Shown piece after piece: positions 10,601 to 20,887 of a stretch of DNA of 20,887 nucleotides; position 1 is the stretch's first letter; the number at the start of each line of letters is the position of its first letter. This DNA comes from a virus, in the IMG/VR virus record IMGVR_UViG_3300036393_000021, positions 1 through 20,887 of that record; one strand, written 5' to 3'. The position numbers and the translations under genes are program-made. A model generated the notes under the pieces. That model searched no databases and was not told the DNA's origin. It worked only from the letters and a program-made list of their open reading frames with translations.

Positions 10601-11250
10601 CAGCGGAACCCCCTGCGGACGCGGCGGATCGGCCCGCCGCCGAAGCGGGCGGCCTCCGTCGCCTGATTGCGGCTGTCGATGCGGTCCTTGTAGAGGCCGG
10701 CCCAGGTCGGCAGCCGCGCATCGTTCTTCAGATAGGGCTCGGCCTGCACCAGGCTGCCGTAGAGCAGGATCGCGCTGTCCTCCGCGAGCAGCCAGTTGGC
10801 CGGCGCTTCGGCGGAGAGGTGCGGCACCTTCTGGCAGTAGACCATCTCGATGGTGACCGGCGCCGATGGCCGCGGAAACACCTCGATCACCGACCCCGCG
10901 ATCGCGAAGTACTGCGGCACGCCGGCCTCGCCCGGATGCTCGGGCGGCAGCGCATCGAGCGGCGCGCGCCGGCCGCGCAGCGCCTGGATATGCGCCAGCG
11001 TGGTCAGGACCAGCGGCCGGTGCCGGCCCTTGACGTTCAGCCGCACCGCCTCCAGCCAGTCCTCCGGCTGCGCCACCGGCTGGTCGCCGATCAGCGCATC
11101 GACGTAGCGATGCATGCGGCGGTCGCGCAGCTTGGTGTTGATGTCGTCCTCCGCCAGGCGGATGAAGTCCGGGATCCGCACCGTCAGGTCGCGCCGATTC
11201 AACCAGTCGGCGATCGCGCCCTGCAGCTCGGCATAGGTCGAGAGCGCCAT
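10600..11250 (-). CDS. Head-tail adaptor protein (P22 gp4-like / phage adaptor family)
   Basis: 216 aa, ATG at 11250, with one-base stop/start overlaps at both ends. The N-terminus MALSTYAELQGAIADWLNRR, then VRIPDFIRLAEDDINTKLR, matches the common phage adaptor family that docks under the portal and begins the short tail. The middle (DWLEAVRLNVKGR, IEMVYCQKVPHLS) and the helix ILLYGSLVQAEPYLKND also match. Length is normal for the family. It acts with the portal (18554-20887) and nozzle (2690-4204) proteins to form the DNA channel. Confidence 0.82.
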   Translation of the reverse strand: MALSTYAELQGAIADWLNRRDLTVRIPDFIRLAEDDINTKLRDRRMHRYVDALIGDQPVAQPEDWLEAVRLNVKGRHRPLVLTTLAHIQALRGRRAPLDALPPEHPGEAGVPQYFAIAGSVIEVFPRPSAPVTIEMVYCQKVPHLSAEAPANWLLAEDSAILLYGSLVQAEPYLKNDARLPTWAGLYKDRIDSRNQATEAARFGGGPIRRVRRGFR

Positions 11251-11634: not shown

Positions 11635-12597
11635 TTACGGCTCCTCGGCCGCGGAAGGCGCGATGTCGGCGACCTTGAAATGCGCCGCCTCGTTCGAGAG
11701 CTCGAGCCCGTATTCCGCGACCAGCATCTTGGTCTCGGCATCGCCGATCTTCGCGATGTCCTCGGTCTTCAGCCGCCGGTAGTAGGCGACCTTGGCGTAT
11801 TCGGGATCGATGCCGAACACCGTGCGCGGCCGCTGCCAGCGCGACGGCACCGCCTTCAGCTCCCCGAAGTCCGACAGATAGAAATCGGCGGACGCCACGA
11901 TCTCGTCGGCATCGACCTTCACCCGGCTGTTGGCGCGGCCGGCGAAGCCCGAGAACTTCCGCTTCGCGTAAGGCCCCATCATCAGCAGCGTCGGCTCGCC
12001 GCCATTCTCGTAGGCCTCCTGGATCGCATCCGCGAGCAGCGCCTCGGTGAAGGCGCGGAGCGTGCCGTTGGTGATCGACGCCGTCTCGCTCGCCGGGTTG
12101 GCGCCGCCCGCGCCATAGCTGACGTTGGTGGTGATCCAGTGCTCCAGCGCCCGCGTCGCGCGCGCCGTCGGCGTCGCATCCTCGCCGTTGTTGCGCGCCT
12201 GCTCGCCCGACAGGATGCTCTCCATGTCGCGCAGCAGCGCCTTGCCGTTCAGCGCGATCTGGTGCGCCATCTCGCCCCGCTTGCCGGCCGCGTCCGCACT
12301 CTCCTGGGAGCCGGAGACGGTCGCGTCGCGGGTCGAGATCTGGCAGACATTGGCGCGCCGGACGGTCGGCTGCGCGGCCGAGCGCGTCAGCTCGAACCCT
12401 TCCTCCTTCCGGTTCGCCTTGTTCACCGCCGGCAGGTTCTCGGTCTGCCAGTCGAACTGCACGTTGGTGGCGTTGCGGGTGCCGATCGCGGTCATGAACG
12501 GCCGGTCGGAGGGGTCGATGTTGTAGATGGCGTTCGCGAGGTCCTCGCGATTGCCCTTCGCCCCATAGGTCGTGAAGGCGTTGGTCACCTTGGCCAT
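11635..12597 (-). CDS. Major capsid protein, SU10/DUF5309 family
   Basis: 320 aa, ATG at 12597, TAA at 11635. The N-terminus FTTYGAKGNREDLANAIYNI, then DPSDRPFMTAIG and NVQFDWQTENLPAVN, is diagnostic for the SU10-type (DUF5309) HK97-fold capsid proteins. VCQISTRDATVSGSQESADA, MMGPYAKRKFSGFAG and DFGELKAVPSRWQRPRTVFG are further family blocks. Full length. It forms the icosahedral shell on the scaffold encoded just upstream. The ribosome site is modest (AGGG about 10 bases before the ATG). A 73-bp gap separates it from the scaffold gene, so it may have its own expression control, though I see no promoter I would defend. Confidence 0.93.
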   Translation of the reverse strand: MAKVTNAFTTYGAKGNREDLANAIYNIDPSDRPFMTAIGTRNATNVQFDWQTENLPAVNKANRKEEGFELTRSAAQPTVRRANVCQISTRDATVSGSQESADAAGKRGEMAHQIALNGKALLRDMESILSGEQARNNGEDATPTARATRALEHWITTNVSYGAGGANPASETASITNGTLRAFTEALLADAIQEAYENGGEPTLLMMGPYAKRKFSGFAGRANSRVKVDADEIVASADFYLSDFGELKAVPSRWQRPRTVFGIDPEYAKVAYYRRLKTEDIAKIGDAETKMLVAEYGLELSNEAAHFKVADIAPSAAEEP

Positions 12598-12670: not shown

Positions 12671-13657
12671 TCAGAGGAGTTTTTCGATCACCGCCCGCGC
12701 GTCGCGCAGGCTGTTGGATTTCGCCAGGCGATGCTTGGCGCGCATCAGCTCCCCGGTATGGCGCGGCAGCGGCTGGCTGCCGGGCCGCGCTGCCGGCAGG
12801 CCGATGCGCGGCGGCTCCGGCTGCAGCCGCTTCTGCATCGCCTCGTCGTACTTCATCGCCTTGTAGAGGACGACGACGGCGCGGTGATCGGTGACGGAGG
12901 AGAGCTCCGCCTCCGACCAGCCGAGCTTGCGGCCATAGTCGCGCACCTTGCCGCGGTCGGCGTTGCGGCGGTCCTTGTCGCGCCAGGCGGGCATCGCCTG
13001 GACCAGGAGGTCACCTTCCTGCCGCAGCTTGCCGTGCAGCTCGCCTTCGGCGGCGACCGCCTCGGCGACCCGGATGCGTTCATACTCGGCGCGCGCCGCT
13101 TCCATGCGCGCCTGGCCGTCGCGCCATTCCTCGCGCTGCATCACGTAGCCGACCGGGTCCTCCGCCTTCAGCCGCGCCCAGTCCGGCTCCGGCCCTTGCT
13201 GCTGCTGGAACTGGAAGGCGAGCGCCGGCAGCAGCTCCGCATACTGGAGCCGTTCCTGCCGCACCGCGGCCGCTTCGCCGTCGAAGGCACGGCGGTCCTC
13301 CGCCAGCGCCTGGGTCTTCCGCGTATAGTCGGCCTGGCGGAGATAGCCGCGCGTCAGCTCCGAGAGCGGCAGCCGCTCGGTGCGGCCCTCGAGCTCGACG
13401 GCGACGAGCGCCGTGGGATCGGAGGCATCCGCCTCGCCGGCGCTGCGCGCTGCGTCCTCGGTGTCCGGCGCCGCATCCTCGGCGTCGATCGGCATCGCGT
13501 CTTCGGCGTCGCCGGTCTCCGCCTCACGCGCCGGCGTCGCGCCCGGCGTGCCGCTGTCGCGGGCCAGGAGGTCGGCGATGCTGGAAGCCGCGGTGCCGAG
13601 ATCGGTGCCCGGGTTGGCCTCGGGCGTCTCGGTTGCGGCGCTGGTGTCGGGGGCCAT
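12671..13657 (-). CDS. Scaffolding protein
   Basis: 328 aa from the ATG at 13657, with AGGAG six bases upstream; the extension to 13924 is a shadow frame. The first 110 residues are acidic and low complexity (AEDAMPIDAEDAAPDTEDAA). Then comes a VELEGRTERLPLSELTRGYL...QADYTRKTQALAEDRR module, the hallmark of podoviral scaffold proteins. A long helical middle (QLQ-rich, EYERIRVAEAVAAEGELHGK) and a basic C-terminus (MRAKHRLAKSNSLRDARAVI) follow; the last would contact the capsid inner face. It lies immediately before the capsid gene, as usual. It would be absent from mature virions. Confidence 0.85.
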   Translation of the reverse strand: MAPDTSAATETPEANPGTDLGTAASSIADLLARDSGTPGATPAREAETGDAEDAMPIDAEDAAPDTEDAARSAGEADASDPTALVAVELEGRTERLPLSELTRGYLRQADYTRKTQALAEDRRAFDGEAAAVRQERLQYAELLPALAFQFQQQQGPEPDWARLKAEDPVGYVMQREEWRDGQARMEAARAEYERIRVAEAVAAEGELHGKLRQEGDLLVQAMPAWRDKDRRNADRGKVRDYGRKLGWSEAELSSVTDHRAVVVLYKAMKYDEAMQKRLQPEPPRIGLPAARPGSQPLPRHTGELMRAKHRLAKSNSLRDARAVIEKLL

Positions 13658-13658
13658 G

Positions 13659-13949
13659 TCAGCTCCTGCTCTGGCGTTGCAGTTCGAAGCGGAGGTTGCG
13701 CTTCGCGATCGCGGCGCCGGCGGCCGCCGCCGCGAGATCCGCGCGCAGCGCATCGAGCGCGCGGAGCATGAGGAAGGCGGCCTCCCGCTCCTCCCGCCCA
13801 TGGGCGGGGTCGGAGTGGCGGATCTGGCCGAGGCAATGCGCTTCGACGTTGGCGAAGGCGCGCTGCAGCCCGGGATGCTCGATCGCCGCGCGCGCCTGGC
13901 GCGCGGCGGCATCGGCATCGGCAAGAATGGTATCGGCGTTGCGTGCCAT
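13659..13949 (-). CDS. Small helical phage protein
   Basis: 96 aa from the ATG at 13949 (MARNADTILADADAAARQAR), with a GGAG site that lies inside the REP-like repeat (GGGTGGAGACAGCG-ATG). It is almost entirely helical and Ala/Arg-rich (EREAAFLMLRALDALRADLA). The stop is one base before the scaffold start, so the two are probably co-translated. No family is recognised; a head-assembly helper is possible. Confidence 0.6.
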   Translation of the reverse strand: MARNADTILADADAAARQARAAIEHPGLQRAFANVEAHCLGQIRHSDPAHGREEREAAFLMLRALDALRADLAAAAAGAAIAKRNLRFELQRQSRS

Positions 13950-14141: not shown

Positions 14142-14579
14142 CTACTGGTAGCGCGCCTCCCGGAACGCGCGCATCGCGGCATTGAGCGCGCGCACAGCCT
14201 CCCGCGGCACGGAGCCGAAGATGTGCCTTTCGCGGGGGGAAGGCGGGTCTATCCACTCGATCACGCCCACGAGGTGGGGGATGTCCCTGTGGCCAGGCCA
14301 ATACGGGGGTGGTTTGTCTCGATTGCCATTGAAGAAGCCATTTATGGGCCCCCGGGCAATGGGGAGGCTCGGAAGGTGCCAGAACGGTCGTATGAAGAAC
14401 CGTTTGCGGTACACACGGGCGATGTAGCCCCGCTTTATCCAAAGGCGTCCGCGATGGAATGCCGGCAAGCGCTGCCGCTTCATTCGCGTCAGCAAGGATG
14501 GTGGGTCATCCATGCCCCGGGGCTGATAGGGGATCGACGGATGCAGTTCCAGGAACGGGCGGCGAGCAGGGGTCTCCAT
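14142..14579 (-). CDS. Unknown basic protein, paralogue A
   Basis: 145 aa from the ATG at 14579 (METPARRPFLELHPSIPYQP); no strong ribosome site is seen. It is rich in Arg, Pro, Trp, Tyr and Phe. It aligns along its whole length with the protein at 14938-15393: SIPY near the start, RQRL, RGRxWxKxGYI, a central GFF, an IP before a hydrophobic strand, and the ending LNAAMRxFREARY. This shared amino-acid pattern with little shared DNA shows both are selected as proteins. No known family is recognised. It lies in the accessory block between portal and scaffold, just after an IS remnant. A toxin, anti-defence or structural role cannot be separated from sequence. Confidence 0.65.
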   Translation of the reverse strand: METPARRPFLELHPSIPYQPRGMDDPPSLLTRMKRQRLPAFHRGRLWIKRGYIARVYRKRFFIRPFWHLPSLPIARGPINGFFNGNRDKPPPYWPGHRDIPHLVGVIEWIDPPSPRERHIFGSVPREAVRALNAAMRAFREARYQ

Positions 14580-14604: not shown

Positions 14605-14771
14605 GATCGAGCTGATCGCCGCCCATTGCTAGCCGTGCCCCCCGGCGCCGTCCAGCACCAGCCGCACCCCACGCTCCCGAACCTCAGGCGAGTAGTTCGC
14701 CGCCGTCTTCTTTGCCGTCATCGCTCCATCCTCTCAACGGTTGGAGCCTCCGGCAAACCCGGCGCGGTTCG
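14605..14771 (-). mobile_element. IS3-family remnant: left end and start of orfA
   Basis: Minus-strand bases from 14771 read CGAACCGCGCCGGGTTTGCC, resembling the left inverted repeat of IS3-family (IS407-type) elements, which begin TGAACCGC. After about 50 bp an ATG at 14721 with GGAG upstream encodes MTAKKTAANYSPEVRERGVR, then LVLDGAGGHG, the N-terminus of an IS3-type OrfA. A TAG at 14629-14631 interrupts it, after which QWAAISSI continues in frame to about 14605 and homology ends. No orfB or right end is present, so it is dead. Confidence 0.78.
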
Positions 14772-14923
14772 GACCTTCTCCCCGGCACTGTATCGCCTCC
14801 GGCGCTCCCGGCCGGTGATGATTTCGACGCGCTCAATGGGCTTCGACATAGGCGCACGCCTGGGCTTCCACCTGGGCCCTCACGGTTGCGCCGCCTGTCC
14901 CGTCGAATTGGGGGCCGCTCCAG
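14772..14923 (-). mobile_element. Second IS remnant: end repeat and start of a transposase orfA
   Basis: An ATG at 14849 encodes MSKPIERVEIITGRERRRRY, then SAGEKV, the opening of transposase OrfA proteins of the 'VEVITGRERRRRWS.EEK' type (seen in IS66- and IS3-like elements). It breaks exactly where the IS3-type left end at 14771 begins, so the other element inserted into it. About 40-70 bp upstream, 14890-14923 matches 17451-17484 (27 of 34) and contains a CCCCCAATT..GACGGGACA core like the ends of some IS3 elements. This marks its outer end, 15 bp past the stop of the gene at 14938. Confidence 0.65.
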
Positions 14924-14937
14924 CAGCCCCTGCGGTG

Positions 14938-15393
14938 TCAGCCCTGCGGCGCGGATCGGTATCGTGCCTCGCGAAAGCCGCGCATTGCCGCGTTGAGATC
15001 GCGGACCGCTTTGATATCGACGTCGCCGAGCGGCCACCGATACCCAATCCCAGGTGCGGGCGTAAAGAAAAGAACCACTTCGTTCATGTCGCAGGGAATA
15101 CGCCTGACGCCGGGCTGCAGGGGCCGTTCCTTATGCCTTTCCCCCCGGCAAAAGAAGCCGCCTCGATACGGTCTGACATAGGGCAGGGGAGGGACGTCCC
15201 AGCCTGGTCGAAACCTGTACAAGCGGCTGCGCCTAAGGCGGGAGATGTAGCCCTTCTTCTCCCACCGCCGTCCCCGGTAGACCTGACACAGGCGTTGTCG
15301 CAGCAGTCGCTTGTAAAGCGGCTGCGGGACATCCATGAACATCGGCAGGTAAGGGATGCTCTGCGGGTTGGACTTTGGCCGGTATAGCCTCAT
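14938..15393 (-). CDS. Unknown basic protein, paralogue B
   Basis: 151 aa taken from the ATG at 15393 (MRLYRPKSNPQSIPYLPMFM), because similarity to paralogue A (14142-14579) begins there; the open frame extends to an ATG at 15591. It is Arg/Tyr/Pro-rich, with RQRLCQVYRGRRWEKKGYIS and IKAVRDLNAAMRGFREARYR as the strongest shared blocks. It starts 31 bases after the restored stop of the frameshifted gene upstream, suggesting the pair was one transcription unit. An IS end lies just after its stop. Function unknown. Confidence 0.62.
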   Translation of the reverse strand: MRLYRPKSNPQSIPYLPMFMDVPQPLYKRLLRQRLCQVYRGRRWEKKGYISRLRRSRLYRFRPGWDVPPLPYVRPYRGGFFCRGERHKERPLQPGVRRIPCDMNEVVLFFTPAPGIGYRWPLGDVDIKAVRDLNAAMRGFREARYRSAPQG

Positions 15394-15424: not shown

Positions 15425-16490
15425 TCACCTCTCAGCGTCTCGCTGCTCCGGATCGGATGACGGCTCGGCGTCCAGAAGGCCACGCGTCGTGCCGGCACCA
15501 AGAACCACTGCGGGCCCAAGGCTGTTAAGCCCGACAATTCGACTGAGATAGGGGTGCGTATTGACGACTGAACGCAGGTAAGCCGCAGCATCCTATGGCA
15601 GTCGGAGGGTTCAGCTCGGGGCGAATGCGATAGCCCTGTCCCGCCAGTGCCCTGGCCACCCGGTCGATATCCTGCGGGCTCGCCGGCAGATTGGTTCCGT
15701 CCTCCAACCGGCCCGAACGATTAGGCGCTGTTATCGGGCGACCTTCCTGGTCCACGTTCATCCGACGCGGATCGACCACGGTGGCGAAGGCCGCCGCTTC
15801 CTCCGGCGTTGGTTCATGCGGAGAGGCAGGAAATCGTTCTTCGGAAGCGTCGGGCCCCGGCTCGTTCGATGACAGGGCGGCCCTATCGCCAGTTGGTTCA
15901 GACGGACCTGATCGATCGGGGCGCACTGCGTCCGGATTGATCGGAAGCCCAAGCCGTGACCGGGGGACGACAGGGGGAGGCGTTGCCGCCGCTGCAATCT
16001 CGTCACCGGGCATCGGTCCTGGCGGCCCGCCATTGTGCCCGATGCCGATCCGCCGGGCGGCGTCCGCGCCGTCCTCCGCGGCGCTCACGCCCAACCGGCG
16101 CCCCGCGCCCCAGCCTTCCCGCCTGGCTTGCGCGACGGCTGCCTCGCTCGCGGTGGTGGCGCGCGTCGCGGCCCGCGCCGCGTGGCGCCCTATCCGATCG
16201 ATCGGGCCGCCTTCCGCCTCGCTCGAATTGCCCAGCAGCAAGCCGCCGGCCGCGAGCGGGATACGCACCTGAGGCGGCATGGGCAAGCCGGTCGCGGCTT
16301 GGACAGCGACATCGCCGGCATTCTGCGGCGTCGCCAACTGCGCAGCCAGGCGCGCAGTCCACCAGGGCGCCGGATTGCGCGCTTCCTGGATGCGCCTGCG
16401 AAGCGCATCGAAGTGAGGTTGGACGAAAGGGCGATAGGGAACATCACTGTACAGCAGACCTCCGCTCGGATCGTCTCCGGCGACGCTCAT
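15425..16490 (-). pseudogene. Frameshifted accessory protein with VDxEGRPxTAP motif
   Basis: The ATG at 16490 overlaps the previous stop (ATGA). Residues 1-299 look coding: an N-terminus with PYRPFVQPHFDALRRRIQEA, a helical hydrophobic part (QVRIPLAAGGLLLG), IGIGHNGGPP (148-157, a motif frequent in alphaproteobacterial phage proteins), a Pro-rich linker, and VDQEGRPITAPNRSGR (246-261), shared with the gene at 17115-18557. After residue 299 this frame becomes Cys-rich and stops at 15525. One base further on, the +1 frame reads DAAAYLRSVVNTHPYLSRIV, then GLNSLGPAVVLGAGTTRGLL, and stops at 15425, a clearly better C-terminus. One skipped base near 15593 restores 354 aa. It is probably a member of the polyvalent/accessory virion proteins. 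A programmed shift is possible but no slippery site is evident. Confidence 0.65.
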
Positions 16491-17320: not shown

Positions 17321-18557
17321 GGGGCTGCTCCGGATATCGGGGGTGGCGGCGTCGCGTGCCGTCATTGTCTTCACCCAAGCGGCTATCCAGAGCGCAGCGA
17401 AGCGGTGCAAGTTCGGACGTGAGGCGGTGGGCAGCCTGTCGGATTCCGAAGCTGCATGTCCGGTCTGATTGGGGGGCGCTCCAACGCGGCGTGCCGGTCC
17501 GATGGCCGCCCTGATCATGGAGCCGGCCAAGCTCCGCACCTGCCCGCGACGTGAGACGCGCGTCGCCTGATCGAATCAGATGGGCCAGATGCCCGATCTC
17601 GTGCGCCTCCGTCATGTCGCCATAGGGCTGGTCGCGGCGTATGTAGGCTTCCGCCACAGCGCGGGCGCGCTCACCACGGCCCGCCAATCGCCCGTCGGGA
17701 ATGCGGACCATGCCAAGCGCATCGCGGCGCGGCATTTCCTCCGCCGACAAACCGCGGCGGACGCCGCCGCCCGCAAGATCGTCTAGTAGCGTACCAACGG
17801 CCTCCACGGAGGAACGCGGAAGCACGTTCCCGGCCGCGTCCCGTCCGAAAATCCGAGGCGCGGTGAGAGGTCGCCCTTCGGGGTCCACCGTGGCTCGCGG
17901 AGGTGCTGCGCCAGAGCCTGTCGGCGCATCCGTTCCCACAGGGTCGGGCGCGGCTGGGCGCCCAGGGGGAAGTATGGGATCATCGCCAACAGTATAACGC
18001 ACAATCGGCCGTTCCGTACCTCCGGAAGCGCCGCCTGAGCCCTCATCGGCAGCACGCCGTGCGCTGGCCTCTGTGCCGCGCTCCGCGGGAACTGCCGGTA
18101 CGGGATCGTCCACGGGACCAAGGGCGCGGTTGCGCCGCCTGGCGACGCCGCCCGCTTCACGGGCCACATCCTCAGTCATGCCTTGCGCAGCCAGACGGCC
18201 GGCCCTTGCCGTCCCGGCTCGCGCGGCGCCCTCCGCCAGGGACCGCGCACCCTGCCTGACCGGGCCGGCTTCGGCGCGCGAAGCCTCGAGGCTCGCCAGG
18301 CCGCCGGCGAGCAGCGTCCGCATCGCGCGGCCGCCAGGACCGAATGCCACCATGAGCGCGGCATCGAGCGGGCTCTGCGGCAGGAGGAGTTCGGACGTCA
18401 GATCCGCGGCCTGCCGCCCCGCCTGCGCCAGGGCGTGGCGCTGCTCCTCCCAGCTCGGCATCGTCGTGCGACCCGTGTCGCGCTCCATGCGCGCCAGCAG
18501 CCGCGCGTCATAGGCTTCGTCGGACATGGGATCGTCGAGAAGTCCCCTGGAAGTCAT
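17115..18557 (-). CDS. Metallopeptidase-like accessory (polyvalent-type) protein, C-terminus truncated
   Basis: The ATG at 18557 overlaps the portal stop (ATGA); the frame is open for 480 codons. Residues 1-150 are helical with a hydrophobic patch (SPLDAALMVAFGPGGRAMRT). A Pro/Gly linker follows, then VDPEGRPLTAPRIFGR (224-239), shared with the gene at 15425-16490. Then comes MTEAHEIGHLAHLI, whose H319-E-I-G-H323 is an HExxH zinc-peptidase motif, with an Arg-rich helix before it. From about residue 358 (base 17484) the frame runs into an IS-end-like sequence, a REP-like repeat and the antiphase of the next gene, so the native C-terminus is lost, perhaps with a third zinc ligand. Proteins of this plan after phage portals fit the polyvalent proteins described in phages and conjugative elements, thought to be delivered with DNA. 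Activity is doubtful in this copy. Confidence 0.6.
   Translation of the reverse strand: MTSRGLLDDPMSDEAYDARLLARMERDTGRTTMPSWEEQRHALAQAGRQAADLTSELLLPQSPLDAALMVAFGPGGRAMRTLLAGGLASLEASRAEAGPVRQGARSLAEGAARAGTARAGRLAAQGMTEDVAREAGGVARRRNRALGPVDDPVPAVPAERGTEASARRAADEGSGGASGGTERPIVRYTVGDDPILPPGRPAAPDPVGTDAPTGSGAAPPRATVDPEGRPLTAPRIFGRDAAGNVLPRSSVEAVGTLLDDLAGGGVRRGLSAEEMPRRDALGMVRIPDGRLAGRGERARAVAEAYIRRDQPYGDMTEAHEIGHLAHLIRSGDARLTSRAGAELGRLHDQGGHRTGTPRWSAPQSDRTCSFGIRQAAHRLTSELAPLRCALDSRLGEDNDGTRRRHPRYPEQPHEHSRPSRRPARRTQRAGGCAATRAGARHAASPGLHHRSGSGAAAGARRRPDAGRPTLARAGGRAGLR
17366..17411 (-). repeat. REP-like 46-bp repeat, copy 2
   Basis: Same-orientation partner of 13953-13998 (39 of 46 identical by eye, all differences transitions). 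It ends two bases before an ATG (caATG) that is open into the Gly/Asp-repeat gene but is probably not its true start. It separates that gene from the IS end at 17451-17484. Confidence 0.65.
17451..17484 (-). repeat. Solo IS-end-like sequence
   Basis: On the minus strand it reads TTGGAGCGCCCCCCAATCAG, then ACCGGACATGCAGC. It matches the outer end of the IS remnant at 14890-14923 in 27 of 34 positions and the same orientation. No transposase start follows it. It coincides with the point where the metallopeptidase-like gene loses coding character. Confidence 0.55.
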
Positions 18558-20887
18558 GGCTGTGCTCCGGGCTGCATCGGCGGCATCGGCGGCTGCGGCG
18601 CTGTGGGCAGCGCCGCCGGCGGCGCCGGCAGCCGCGCGCGCTCCAGCAGCGCCAGGATCGCCGGCAGGTCGACCGGCTGGCCGTGCTTCAACTGCATCTC
18701 ATAGGCGCGCAGCACGATGTCGGCCTCGGCGCGGTCGCGCTCGCGGTCGTCCGTGCGCTCGGCCTTCCACGCCTCCAGCCGCTGCGCTTCCAGCTTCACC
18801 TCCGCATCGAGGCGCGAGGTCGCGATCCGCGCCTCCGCCTCCATCCGCGCATTCGCGACCTGTGCCTGCGCCAGCGCCGCGTTCGGATCGGGCGGCGGCC
18901 CGCCGCGCGCCTGCTGCGCCTGCGCACGGAACGCCATGTCCTCCGCGGCACCAGGGTCGAGGAAGAAGCGGTTCGCGTCCTTGTACCCGCCGAGGCGCAC
19001 GATCTCCGCCAGCGTCGCGCGGAACTGCCGGATGGTGACCAGCGGGTTCTCCGGCCCGATCGTCGTCAGGATCTGCTGCTGCTGTTGCAGCACCATCATC
19101 AGGAAGGCCATGCGCTGGCTGTCCGGACCGCGGCCGAGGGCGACGTTCACCGAGACGTCCATCTCCGCATCCCAGACGCGCGGATCGACCGAGACCCATT
19201 GCCCGCGCAGCCTGACCGTCCGCGGCCGGTCCTGGTGGCGCACCAGCGCCCGCAGCACGCCGCGGAACACCTGCTTGACCAGCGTCTCGGCCAGCGTCCG
19301 CGCGATCATCTCGACCCGCTCCTGCGAGGCCTCGATGGTGTTCTGCACCGCGACCTTGGTCGCCGATTGCAGCGCCTCGGGGTCGAGGCCGCGGCTCGCG
19401 CGGGTGATGCCGGTGCGCTGCGCCTTCACATCGTCCACATAGGCGAGCACGCCCATCGCCTCGGCGCCGACGAAAGGCAGCGTCAGCGGCTGCACCATGC
19501 CCGGCGCCTTCATCCGGATGATCGCGCCGCGTTCGTTGTTGGCGACGTCGTCGAGGTTCACCGCCCCCTCGACCACGCCCATCTTGGGATCGAGCGCTTC
19601 CGCCAGGCTGTCCATCACCGAGCGCAGGATGCCGGTCTTGAGGTCCTGCAGGTCGAGCGTCTGGTCGGCGACCGAGCTGCCGATCACCCGGTGCGGCTGC
19701 CTGAGCGGCGAGCCGAGCGCGATCGGCACCTCCGGCACCACCTCGTCGCTCAGCACCAGCGCGCAATCATCGCCGGCGGTGCAGACCCGGTGCAGCTCGG
19801 CGATGCCGTCGCCGTCGCCGTCGTAGCGGATGAAATGCTCGATGCTCAGCACCCGCCAGGCGCTGCGGTCGGCGGAGGATTGGTCGAAGGGGAGCGAGCG
19901 CGCCGGGTCGCGCTGCGTCGCTTCCGCGTTCAGGGCGAAGTCGGCCTCCGCCGTCGCGTGCCGCGCCAGCGTCTCGAGGTCGCCGGCGCCGCGCGCGACG
20001 AGGTCCGAGATCCGCTCCAGGCTGCGATGCGCGCAATAGGTCGCGCCCTCGATGTCGCGGGCATCGCGGGCGATGACGAATTCCTCGGGCGGGATCGCGG
20101 CCAGCCGCAGCACCCCGCGCCGGACCGTCCGCCGCACGCGGAGATCGGCCGCCGCCATCGGCGGCAGGCCGGGCTCCGACGGCATCGGCATCTCGTGCCG
20201 CTCCAGCAGCGCGATCGCGGGGTCGGCGAGCAGCCGCGCCTCGGTCAGCGGGTCGAGGCCGGAATAGGCGAGCTCCTCGACCCGCACCGCTTCCTCCCAC
20301 CACCATTTGACGATGCCGGTCTTCTTGAGCAGCGCGTCATGCACCGCGTCGTGCAGGGTCGCGAACCAGGAATTGCCGTCGGCGTTGATGACGTACCCGA
20401 CATAGTCGGTCATCTGCTCGGCCATCGCCTCGTCCTCCGGCCCGTGCGGGACGAATTCGACGACGCGCTCGCCGGAGGTGAAGATGCGGATCAGCCCGGG
20501 CAGCATCTGGTGCACGATGTCGGCGACTTCCCGCGCCACCACCGCGCTGCGGCCGGCGAGGTCCTCAAGCTGCTCCGGCCGGTCCTGCCGGTCGTAGATC
20601 AGCCCGTCATAATAGTCCTGCGCCCGTTGGCGTTCCGGCGCCTGTTGGCTGTCGATCGCATCCGCCGCGTCCTGGTAACTCTGGCGGATCAGCGCGCGGA
20701 CCTCCTCCGGCGACAGTCCCAGCGGCTCCTCCGGCGGCTCTGGTGCCGGCGCCACCAAGGGCACGCCATCCTCCGCGCCCAGGATCGCCGCGGCCGCGGC
20801 ATCGAGTGCGGCGCGCATGCCGCCGAGCGGCTTCGGCGGCAGCGCCGCCAGGATGTCGCCGAGCCTGCCGTGCTGCCGTGCCGTCAC
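18554..20887 (-). CDS. Portal protein (short-tailed phage type)
   Basis: 777 aa open from a GTG at the window edge; the start may be this GTG or lie outside. Clear portal blocks are QDYYDGLIYDRQDRPEQLED, SAVVAREVADIVHQMLPGLI, then FTSGERVVEFVPHGPEDEAM, AEQMTDYVGYVINADGNSWF and DALLKKTGIVKWWWEE. Downstream are IPPEEFVIARDARDIEGATY, the wing/stem part, and GLDPEALQSATKVAVQNTIE with its helix. The C-terminus is a long helical barrel-like segment (EARIATSRLDAEVKLEAQRL) and a Pro-rich tail. Length and pattern match the large P22/epsilon15-like portals. The dodecamer forms the DNA entry vertex and docks to the adaptor at 10600-11250. The terminase genes expected upstream are beyond the window. Confidence 0.9.
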   Translation of the reverse strand: MTARQHGRLGDILAALPPKPLGGMRAALDAAAAAILGAEDGVPLVAPAPEPPEEPLGLSPEEVRALIRQSYQDAADAIDSQQAPERQRAQDYYDGLIYDRQDRPEQLEDLAGRSAVVAREVADIVHQMLPGLIRIFTSGERVVEFVPHGPEDEAMAEQMTDYVGYVINADGNSWFATLHDAVHDALLKKTGIVKWWWEEAVRVEELAYSGLDPLTEARLLADPAIALLERHEMPMPSEPGLPPMAAADLRVRRTVRRGVLRLAAIPPEEFVIARDARDIEGATYCAHRSLERISDLVARGAGDLETLARHATAEADFALNAEATQRDPARSLPFDQSSADRSAWRVLSIEHFIRYDGDGDGIAELHRVCTAGDDCALVLSDEVVPEVPIALGSPLRQPHRVIGSSVADQTLDLQDLKTGILRSVMDSLAEALDPKMGVVEGAVNLDDVANNERGAIIRMKAPGMVQPLTLPFVGAEAMGVLAYVDDVKAQRTGITRASRGLDPEALQSATKVAVQNTIEASQERVEMIARTLAETLVKQVFRGVLRALVRHQDRPRTVRLRGQWVSVDPRVWDAEMDVSVNVALGRGPDSQRMAFLMMVLQQQQQILTTIGPENPLVTIRQFRATLAEIVRLGGYKDANRFFLDPGAAEDMAFRAQAQQARGGPPPDPNAALAQAQVANARMEAEARIATSRLDAEVKLEAQRLEAWKAERTDDRERDRAEADIVLRAYEMQLKHGQPVDLPAILALLERARLPAPPAALPTAPQPPMPPMQPGAQP

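What the first reader, a model, noticed from the sequence alone, without database searches (positions are those of the whole stretch)
17485..18557. HExxH metallopeptidase-like protein coupled to the portal gene
HEIGH at residues 319-323 follows a shared VDPEGRPLTAP motif in a protein whose start overlaps the portal stop. This fits the polyvalent proteins that phages are thought to inject with their DNA. In this position it could be virion-packaged. The copy is cut by an IS-end-like sequence about 35 residues after the motif, so it may be a fossil of an active effector in relatives.
Basis: partly seen in the sequence, partly recalled or inferred. Interest (0 to 1): 0.62.

Follow-up and report, generated by a model that had tools for sequence, protein, structure and literature searches.

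The report
Phage peptidase gene with hidden second gene
The flagged phage gene is a broken copy of a peptidase probably delivered into bacteria with the phage DNA, and the same stretch of DNA also appears to encode a second, conserved small protein in another reading frame, possibly the peptidase's partner or inhibitor.

Summary
HEIGH lies at residues 319-323, and the ORF start overlaps the portal stop. A profile of full-length relatives matches up to about residue 355 (E=5e-20); an IS3-end-like sequence follows. Full-length relatives exist after portals in IMG/VR contig L003 and Plastoroseomonas hellenica (L009, two copies). They carry HExxH plus a downstream Glu and model as an LF/PPEP-like zincin. 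A distant relative (L048) fuses this domain to LPD23, so "polyvalent-type peptidase, decayed here" is well supported; packaging and injection remain inferred.

The larger result lies inside the gene. The linker plus VDPEGRPLTAP DNA also encodes, in the +1 frame, a conserved basic peptide (window 17983-17783, minus strand). All five copies of this zincin type found (four genomes) keep it. Substitutions in the linker follow +1-frame codons: dN/dS is above 1 in the zincin frame for all ten pairs and at most 0.54 in the +1 frame. A profile of standalone small ORFs (window 15393-14938, 14579-14142; L009 10363-10737) hits all five nested copies. The second zincin type lacks the nested copy but has a standalone one directly downstream. 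I read this as a small zincin partner, possibly an inhibitor, overprinted inside its own effector gene. Coding is likely (about 0.75); the inhibitor role is a guess (about 0.3).

The parts
18554..20887 (-). SU10/LUZ24-type portal gene (5' end at the contig end)
   Evidence: Pfam SU10_portal E=1.6e-181, PHROG 1216 portal
17485..18557 (-). Truncated zincin effector gene (zincin-frame part), N-terminal module + linker + VDPEGR motif + HEIGH; lacks the third-ligand region
   Evidence: full-length relatives L003 8884-9972, L009 6010-7221 and 9052-10311
17783..17983 (-). Nested +1-frame ORF (66 aa, MIPYFPLGAQPRPTLWERMRRQALAQHLREPRWTPKGDLS...)
   Evidence: profile homology and codon-position signal
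17991..17996 (-). TATACT, a -10-like hexamer 7 nt before the nested ATG (TAYAAT-like in all five copies); suggestive only
   Evidence: promoter scan found no full promoter
17457..17483 (-). IS3-family terminal sequence that ends the zincin homology
17347..17411 (-). Repeat of phage upstream/promoter-like element CTTGCA...CTCTGGATAGC
   Evidence: 83% to 13998-13934; also upstream of portal in L003 and L009 and before scaffold region in L003 and L004
16487..17321 (-). Cassette gene starting MSIPGLLGG (weak PHROG 10432 match)
   Evidence: orthologues in L003, L004, L009
15428..16490 (-). Second zincin-type gene (VDQEGRPITAP); core with HExxH deleted, tail YLRSVVNTHPYLSRIVGLN still readable in another frame at 15592-15428
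   Evidence: intact counterpart L009 9052-10311
14938..15393 (-). Standalone small ORF sm1 (151 aa), same family as the nested ORF
14605..14922 (-). IS3-family debris
   Evidence: 93% and 87% matches to Roseomonas plasmid IS3 regions
14142..14579 (-). Standalone small ORF sm2 (145 aa)
12671..13924 (-). Scaffold protein region (with the small scaffold-proximal gene at its upstream end)
   Evidence: PHROG 3927 E=2e-54
11635..12597 (-). Major capsid protein (SU10_MCP)
   Evidence: Pfam E=1.9e-88

Best explanation
The ORF is the remnant of a portal-linked phage effector of the polyvalent-protein kind: a shuffled N-terminal module, a Pro/Ala-rich linker, the motif VDPEGRxLTAP, and a C-terminal zincin that cleaves the protein itself or a host protein. 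In the window an IS3-type event removed the third zinc-ligand region, so this copy should be inactive; relatives are full length. The linker+motif DNA carries a second gene in the +1 frame, encoding a small basic protein of the same family as standalone ORFs next to the other zincin type. Most likely mechanism: the zincin is made late and packaged with the DNA (inferred). The small protein is made beside it and binds it as inhibitor, chaperone or packaging partner (inferred). Shown: zincin family, decay, +1-frame homology and +1-frame constraint. Inferred: translation of the +1 frame, its promoter, packaging, partner role.
For: Zincin: the profile of full-length relatives matches the ORF at E=5e-20. 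HExxH plus downstream Glu are conserved. The model's structural matches are LF, Certhrax and PPEP zincins, Z about 5-7 over 120-139 residues for most rows. Polyvalent context: L048 joins LPD23 (E=3e-14) to this zincin next to an SU10-type portal. Nested gene: (1) a profile of the three standalone ORFs hits the +1 frame of all five zincin copies, E 5e-6 to 1e-3 among 3764 ORFs, and the reciprocal profile finds the standalone ORFs. (2) The standalone profile alone also hit one nested copy in a 7.3 Mb genome, E=9e-4. (3) Linker changes on the tree fall 32/15/16 on zincin-frame positions 1/2/3, that is mainly on +1-frame third positions (permutation p=0.0003). (4) Orthologue pairs: linker 21/8/10 versus downstream zincin 92/85/172 (Fisher, position 1 versus 3, p=0.0007); control pair without the nested ORF 13/8/20. 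(5) Over 28 linker codons dN/dS exceeds 1 in the zincin frame in all ten pairs and is 0.16-0.54 in the +1 frame. (6) The +1 peptide persists where the zincin is decayed: window, L004 (in-frame TAG), L009 third copy (HQIGH). Partner role: the zincin type without the nested ORF has a standalone copy directly downstream in L009 and the window.
Against: Only five nested copies from four genomes were found; the linker is short and the pairs are not independent. The third frame is also open in all copies, so openness proves nothing. The contrast with the control pair alone is not significant (p=0.075). No Shine-Dalgarno sequence is evident and no sigma-70 promoter was found; the -10-like hexamer could be explained by the zincin-frame Tyr-Asn codons. 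L048 has no nested copy. Window sm2 and the L003 mini copy have no zincin beside them. The small protein model is of low confidence, and nothing shows binding or inhibition. The zincin model has mean pLDDT 58.
Confidence: 0.6

Rival explanations
1. Plain decayed polyvalent zincin; the +1-frame resemblance is a by-product of DNA shared with the small genes, through gene conversion or an ancient out-of-frame fusion, and is not translated inside the zincin gene.
For: The linker tolerates almost any sequence in the zincin frame. The region is clearly shuffled between cassettes. No strong promoter or ribosome site was found.
Against: The +1-frame constraint is seen between orthologous zincin pairs. 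Nested copies resemble nested copies of other genomes more than the standalone copy of their own genome (L009), which argues against local conversion. The zincin-frame motif is shared with L048 and the second zincin type, so it is not derived from the small genes.
Confidence: 0.3
2. The zincin is not a delivered effector but a maturation protease that trims the polyvalent protein or head proteins before or during packaging, as proposed for P1 DdrB; the small protein is then a scaffold or adaptor.
For: Position between portal and scaffold in the head gene block. Autoproteolysis is one role proposed for polyvalent MPTases (PMC5512222).
Against: Dispensable: the window and L004 copies are broken, related portal neighbourhoods lack it, and typical LUZ24-like phages have only small genes here.
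Confidence: 0.3
3. Chance HExxH in a GC-rich ORF.
For: Short motif; no Pfam or PHROG match to the ORF itself.
Against: Profile match E=5e-20, conserved Glu, and a zincin-like model.
Confidence: 0.01

Closest known systems
Zincin-like MPTase domains of phage polyvalent proteins (Iyer et al. 2017, PMC5512222)
   Same: HExxH plus Glu on a later helix, LF-like fold, phage with portal-terminase packaging, variable domain architecture; relative L048 has LPD23
   Different: Short proteins (362-423 aa) just after the portal; no Pfam model detects them; a second gene lies in the +1 frame of the linker
MuF toxins of temperate phages (PMC5576092)
   Same: Gene directly after the portal, exchangeable C-terminal domain; a small ORF follows most of those toxin genes and is proposed to be immunity
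   Different: No MuF domain was found; the candidate partner is nested in another frame for one zincin type and follows downstream for the other
LF/PPEP-type (M34-like) zincins
   Same: Best structural matches of the model
   Different: About 15% identity, modest Z, no sequence-level link in PDB; a fold resemblance only
Overprinted (overlapping) genes of viruses (review PMC8227390)
   Same: A new protein read from an alternative frame of an older gene
   Different: Here the overprinted sequence also occurs as standalone genes beside a sister effector

Membership tests
Polyvalent-protein MPTase | HExxH and a Glu on a following helix | tested here: met
   In full-length relatives; the window copy has HEIGH but lost the Glu region
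Polyvalent-protein MPTase | Zincin core fold | tested here: met
   Model of the L003 domain, pLDDT 58 overall but about 66-84 for residues 121-180; matches are zincins
Polyvalent-protein MPTase | Found fused to other polyvalent domains | tested here: met
   LPD23 plus zincin in L048; not in the window protein itself
Polyvalent-protein MPTase | Packaged in the virion or injected | not testable with these tools
   Needs virion proteomics
MuF toxin | MuF domain | tested here: not met
   No Pfam match in P0001, L003 or L009 zincin proteins at E up to 1-5
MuF toxin | Gene directly after the portal with a small candidate immunity ORF | tested here: met
   immunity function itself not tested
LF/PPEP (M34) peptidase | Family-level similarity beyond the zincin core | tested here: inconclusive
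   Z about 5-7, no Foldseek match below E=0.001; PDB sequence search gave no natural protein
Overlapping gene pair | Both frames under protein-level constraint | tested here: met
   +1 frame in the linker, zincin frame in motif and domain; small sample
Overlapping gene pair | Both products made | not testable with these tools
   Needs ribosome profiling or mass spectrometry

The most novel reading that the evidence does not exclude
A phage effector peptidase carries its own inhibitor or immunity protein as an overprinted gene in the +1 frame of its linker, so that effector and protection move together in one cassette; standalone versions guard a sister effector.
Probability: 0.27. Interest if true: 0.85.

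Novelty: new variant of a known kind. Interest (0 to 1): 0.6.

Why it matters
Polyvalent and MuF-type phage effectors are common, but how the producing cell is protected is mostly unknown because candidate immunity genes are sought only as separate downstream ORFs. A partner hidden in another frame of the effector would be missed by standard annotation. It would also show a simple way to keep effector and partner linked during cassette exchange, and it gives a rare case where an overprinted sequence can be compared with standalone copies of itself.

Tried and rejected
Pattern scans with the ORF itself found no relatives in viral or genome contigs and tblastn found none in phages; relatives came only through the portal. 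80 further portal neighbourhoods gave no zincin. Searches of up to 397 genomes per query in the family and order of the Plastoroseomonas strain gave only that strain, apart from ten weak zincin-profile matches (E 4e-4 to 8e-4) that I did not follow up. I first took the 17347-17411 repeat as evidence against an IS end; a closer look showed both a phage repeat and, next to it, a true IS3-like end. Considered and rejected: that the VDPEGR motif is only DNA-level conservation (L048 and the second zincin type share it at protein level without the +1 peptide); that the +1 frame is notable because it is open (the third frame is open too). The small protein model was too poor to search. L138 was a pattern coincidence. 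PADLOC and NCBIfam were not searched.

Full report
What was checked. The window is the whole of one virus record of 20,887 bases. Its minus-strand block holds a portal (SU10_portal), a run of cassette genes, a scaffold protein and a major capsid protein. The flagged ORF starts on the portal stop, has VDPEGRPLTAP at residues 224-234 and HEIGH at 319-323.

Relatives. The ORF itself finds nothing by pattern or tblastn, but the portal leads to three close relatives: IMG/VR contigs L003 (85%) and L004 (75%), and a contig of Plastoroseomonas hellenica, L009 (82%). After those portals lie full-length versions: one in L003 and two in L009, each with HExxH, a later Glu (NELFAEG, NELYADG, KELFANA) and a tail ending in GLLG. 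L004 has one interrupted by a TAG codon; L009 has a third, degenerate copy with HQIGH. A more distant relative, L048, was found by searching the motif: a 718-residue protein with the polyvalent domain LPD23 and the same zincin, next to an SU10-type portal. A profile of the full-length domains recovers the window ORF at E=5e-20, up to about residue 355.

Fold. AlphaFold with six sequences gave a moderate model (mean pLDDT 58; about 66-84 for residues 121-180). HExxH and the conserved Glu sit on separate helices of the predicted core. Foldseek and VIA-align list LF, Certhrax and PPEP zincins (Z about 5-7). This fits the description of polyvalent MPTases as LF-like zincins with HExxH and a Glu on a later helix (PMC5512222). 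It is a fold resemblance only; no sequence-level link to any solved natural protein was found.

Decay in the window. The homology stops where an IS3-family terminal sequence begins (17483, minus); the same end closes the IS3 debris at 14922 and occurs on a Roseomonas plasmid. The second zincin-type gene (15525-16490) lost its core by an internal deletion, with the tail still readable. So both zincins of this phage are broken here, while full-length copies exist elsewhere.

The hidden frame. Two small ORFs (15393-14938 and 14579-14142) and L009 10363-10737 form a family. Their N-terminal part reads like the +1 frame of the DNA that encodes the zincin linker and VDPEGRPLTAP. A profile made only from these standalone ORFs hits the +1 frame of all five zincin copies (window, L003, L004, L009 twice), and the reverse profile hits the standalone ORFs. 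In the linker, distant copies share 12-15 of 24 residues in the +1 frame but only 5-8 of 25 in the zincin frame. Changes fall mainly on +1-frame third positions: 32 against 15 and 16 (p=0.0003). In orthologue pairs the linker shows 21/8/10 changes at zincin-frame positions 1/2/3, against 92/85/172 downstream; a control pair without the nested ORF shows the ordinary 13/8/20. dN/dS over the linker is above 1 in the zincin frame in all ten pairs and 0.16-0.54 in the +1 frame. The motif itself is shared in the zincin frame by L048 and by the second zincin type, which lack the +1 peptide, so the zincin frame is the older one and the +1 frame looks overprinted.

Arrangement. The zincin type with the nested ORF has no standalone copy directly behind it; the second type has no nested copy but a standalone one directly downstream (L009 9052-10311 then 10363; window second zincin then 15393). 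Window sm2 and the 48-residue L003 copy (11059-11205) are unpaired, perhaps leftovers. The +1 peptide survives where the zincin is broken (window, L004, L009 third copy). This pairing is why I favour a partner or inhibitor role; it resembles MuF toxins, whose genes sit by the portal and are mostly followed by a small candidate immunity ORF (PMC5576092). No MuF domain was found here.

Limits. Five copies from four genomes, short linker, non-independent pairs; the third frame is open too; the nested start has a TAYAAT-like hexamer 7 nt upstream in all five copies, but no full promoter or ribosome site was found. Packaging, injection, translation of the +1 frame and any binding are inferences. 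The held collections contain few further members.

Noticed in passing
L003 8884, 9969; L004 2869, 5654; L009 6010, 8135; L030 9888; L048 103; window 17321: Portal-adjacent cassette proteins mostly begin M..GLL[D/G/S] and several end in GLLG or similar, across otherwise unrelated domains; a possible packaging tag.
   Followed up: partly
window 16490-15800; L009 3884-5968 and 9052-10311; L030 9888-11402: A shared N-terminal module (RNPAPW..LxTPQ..GD..A..RIPLAAxGLL) is joined to different C-terminal domains, one matching DUF7178 (Microcystis phage MJing1).
   Followed up: partly
window 13998-13934 and 17411-17347; L003 6474-6507 and 11677-11746; L009 1351-1384; L004 8487-8556: Repeat CTTGCA(C/T)C...GCTCTGGATAGCCGC upstream of the portal and of the scaffold-proximal gene: possibly a phage late promoter.
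   Followed up: partly
L009 10734-11822: The P. hellenica prophage contig turns into a patatin-like reading frame on the other strand where scaffold and capsid genes are expected, so this prophage is probably rearranged.
   Followed up: no
window 14605-14922: IS3-family debris inside the late gene block.
   Followed up: partly
L004 4394-4837: A minus-strand ORF lies in the cassette region of L004, against the direction of the late genes.
   Followed up: no
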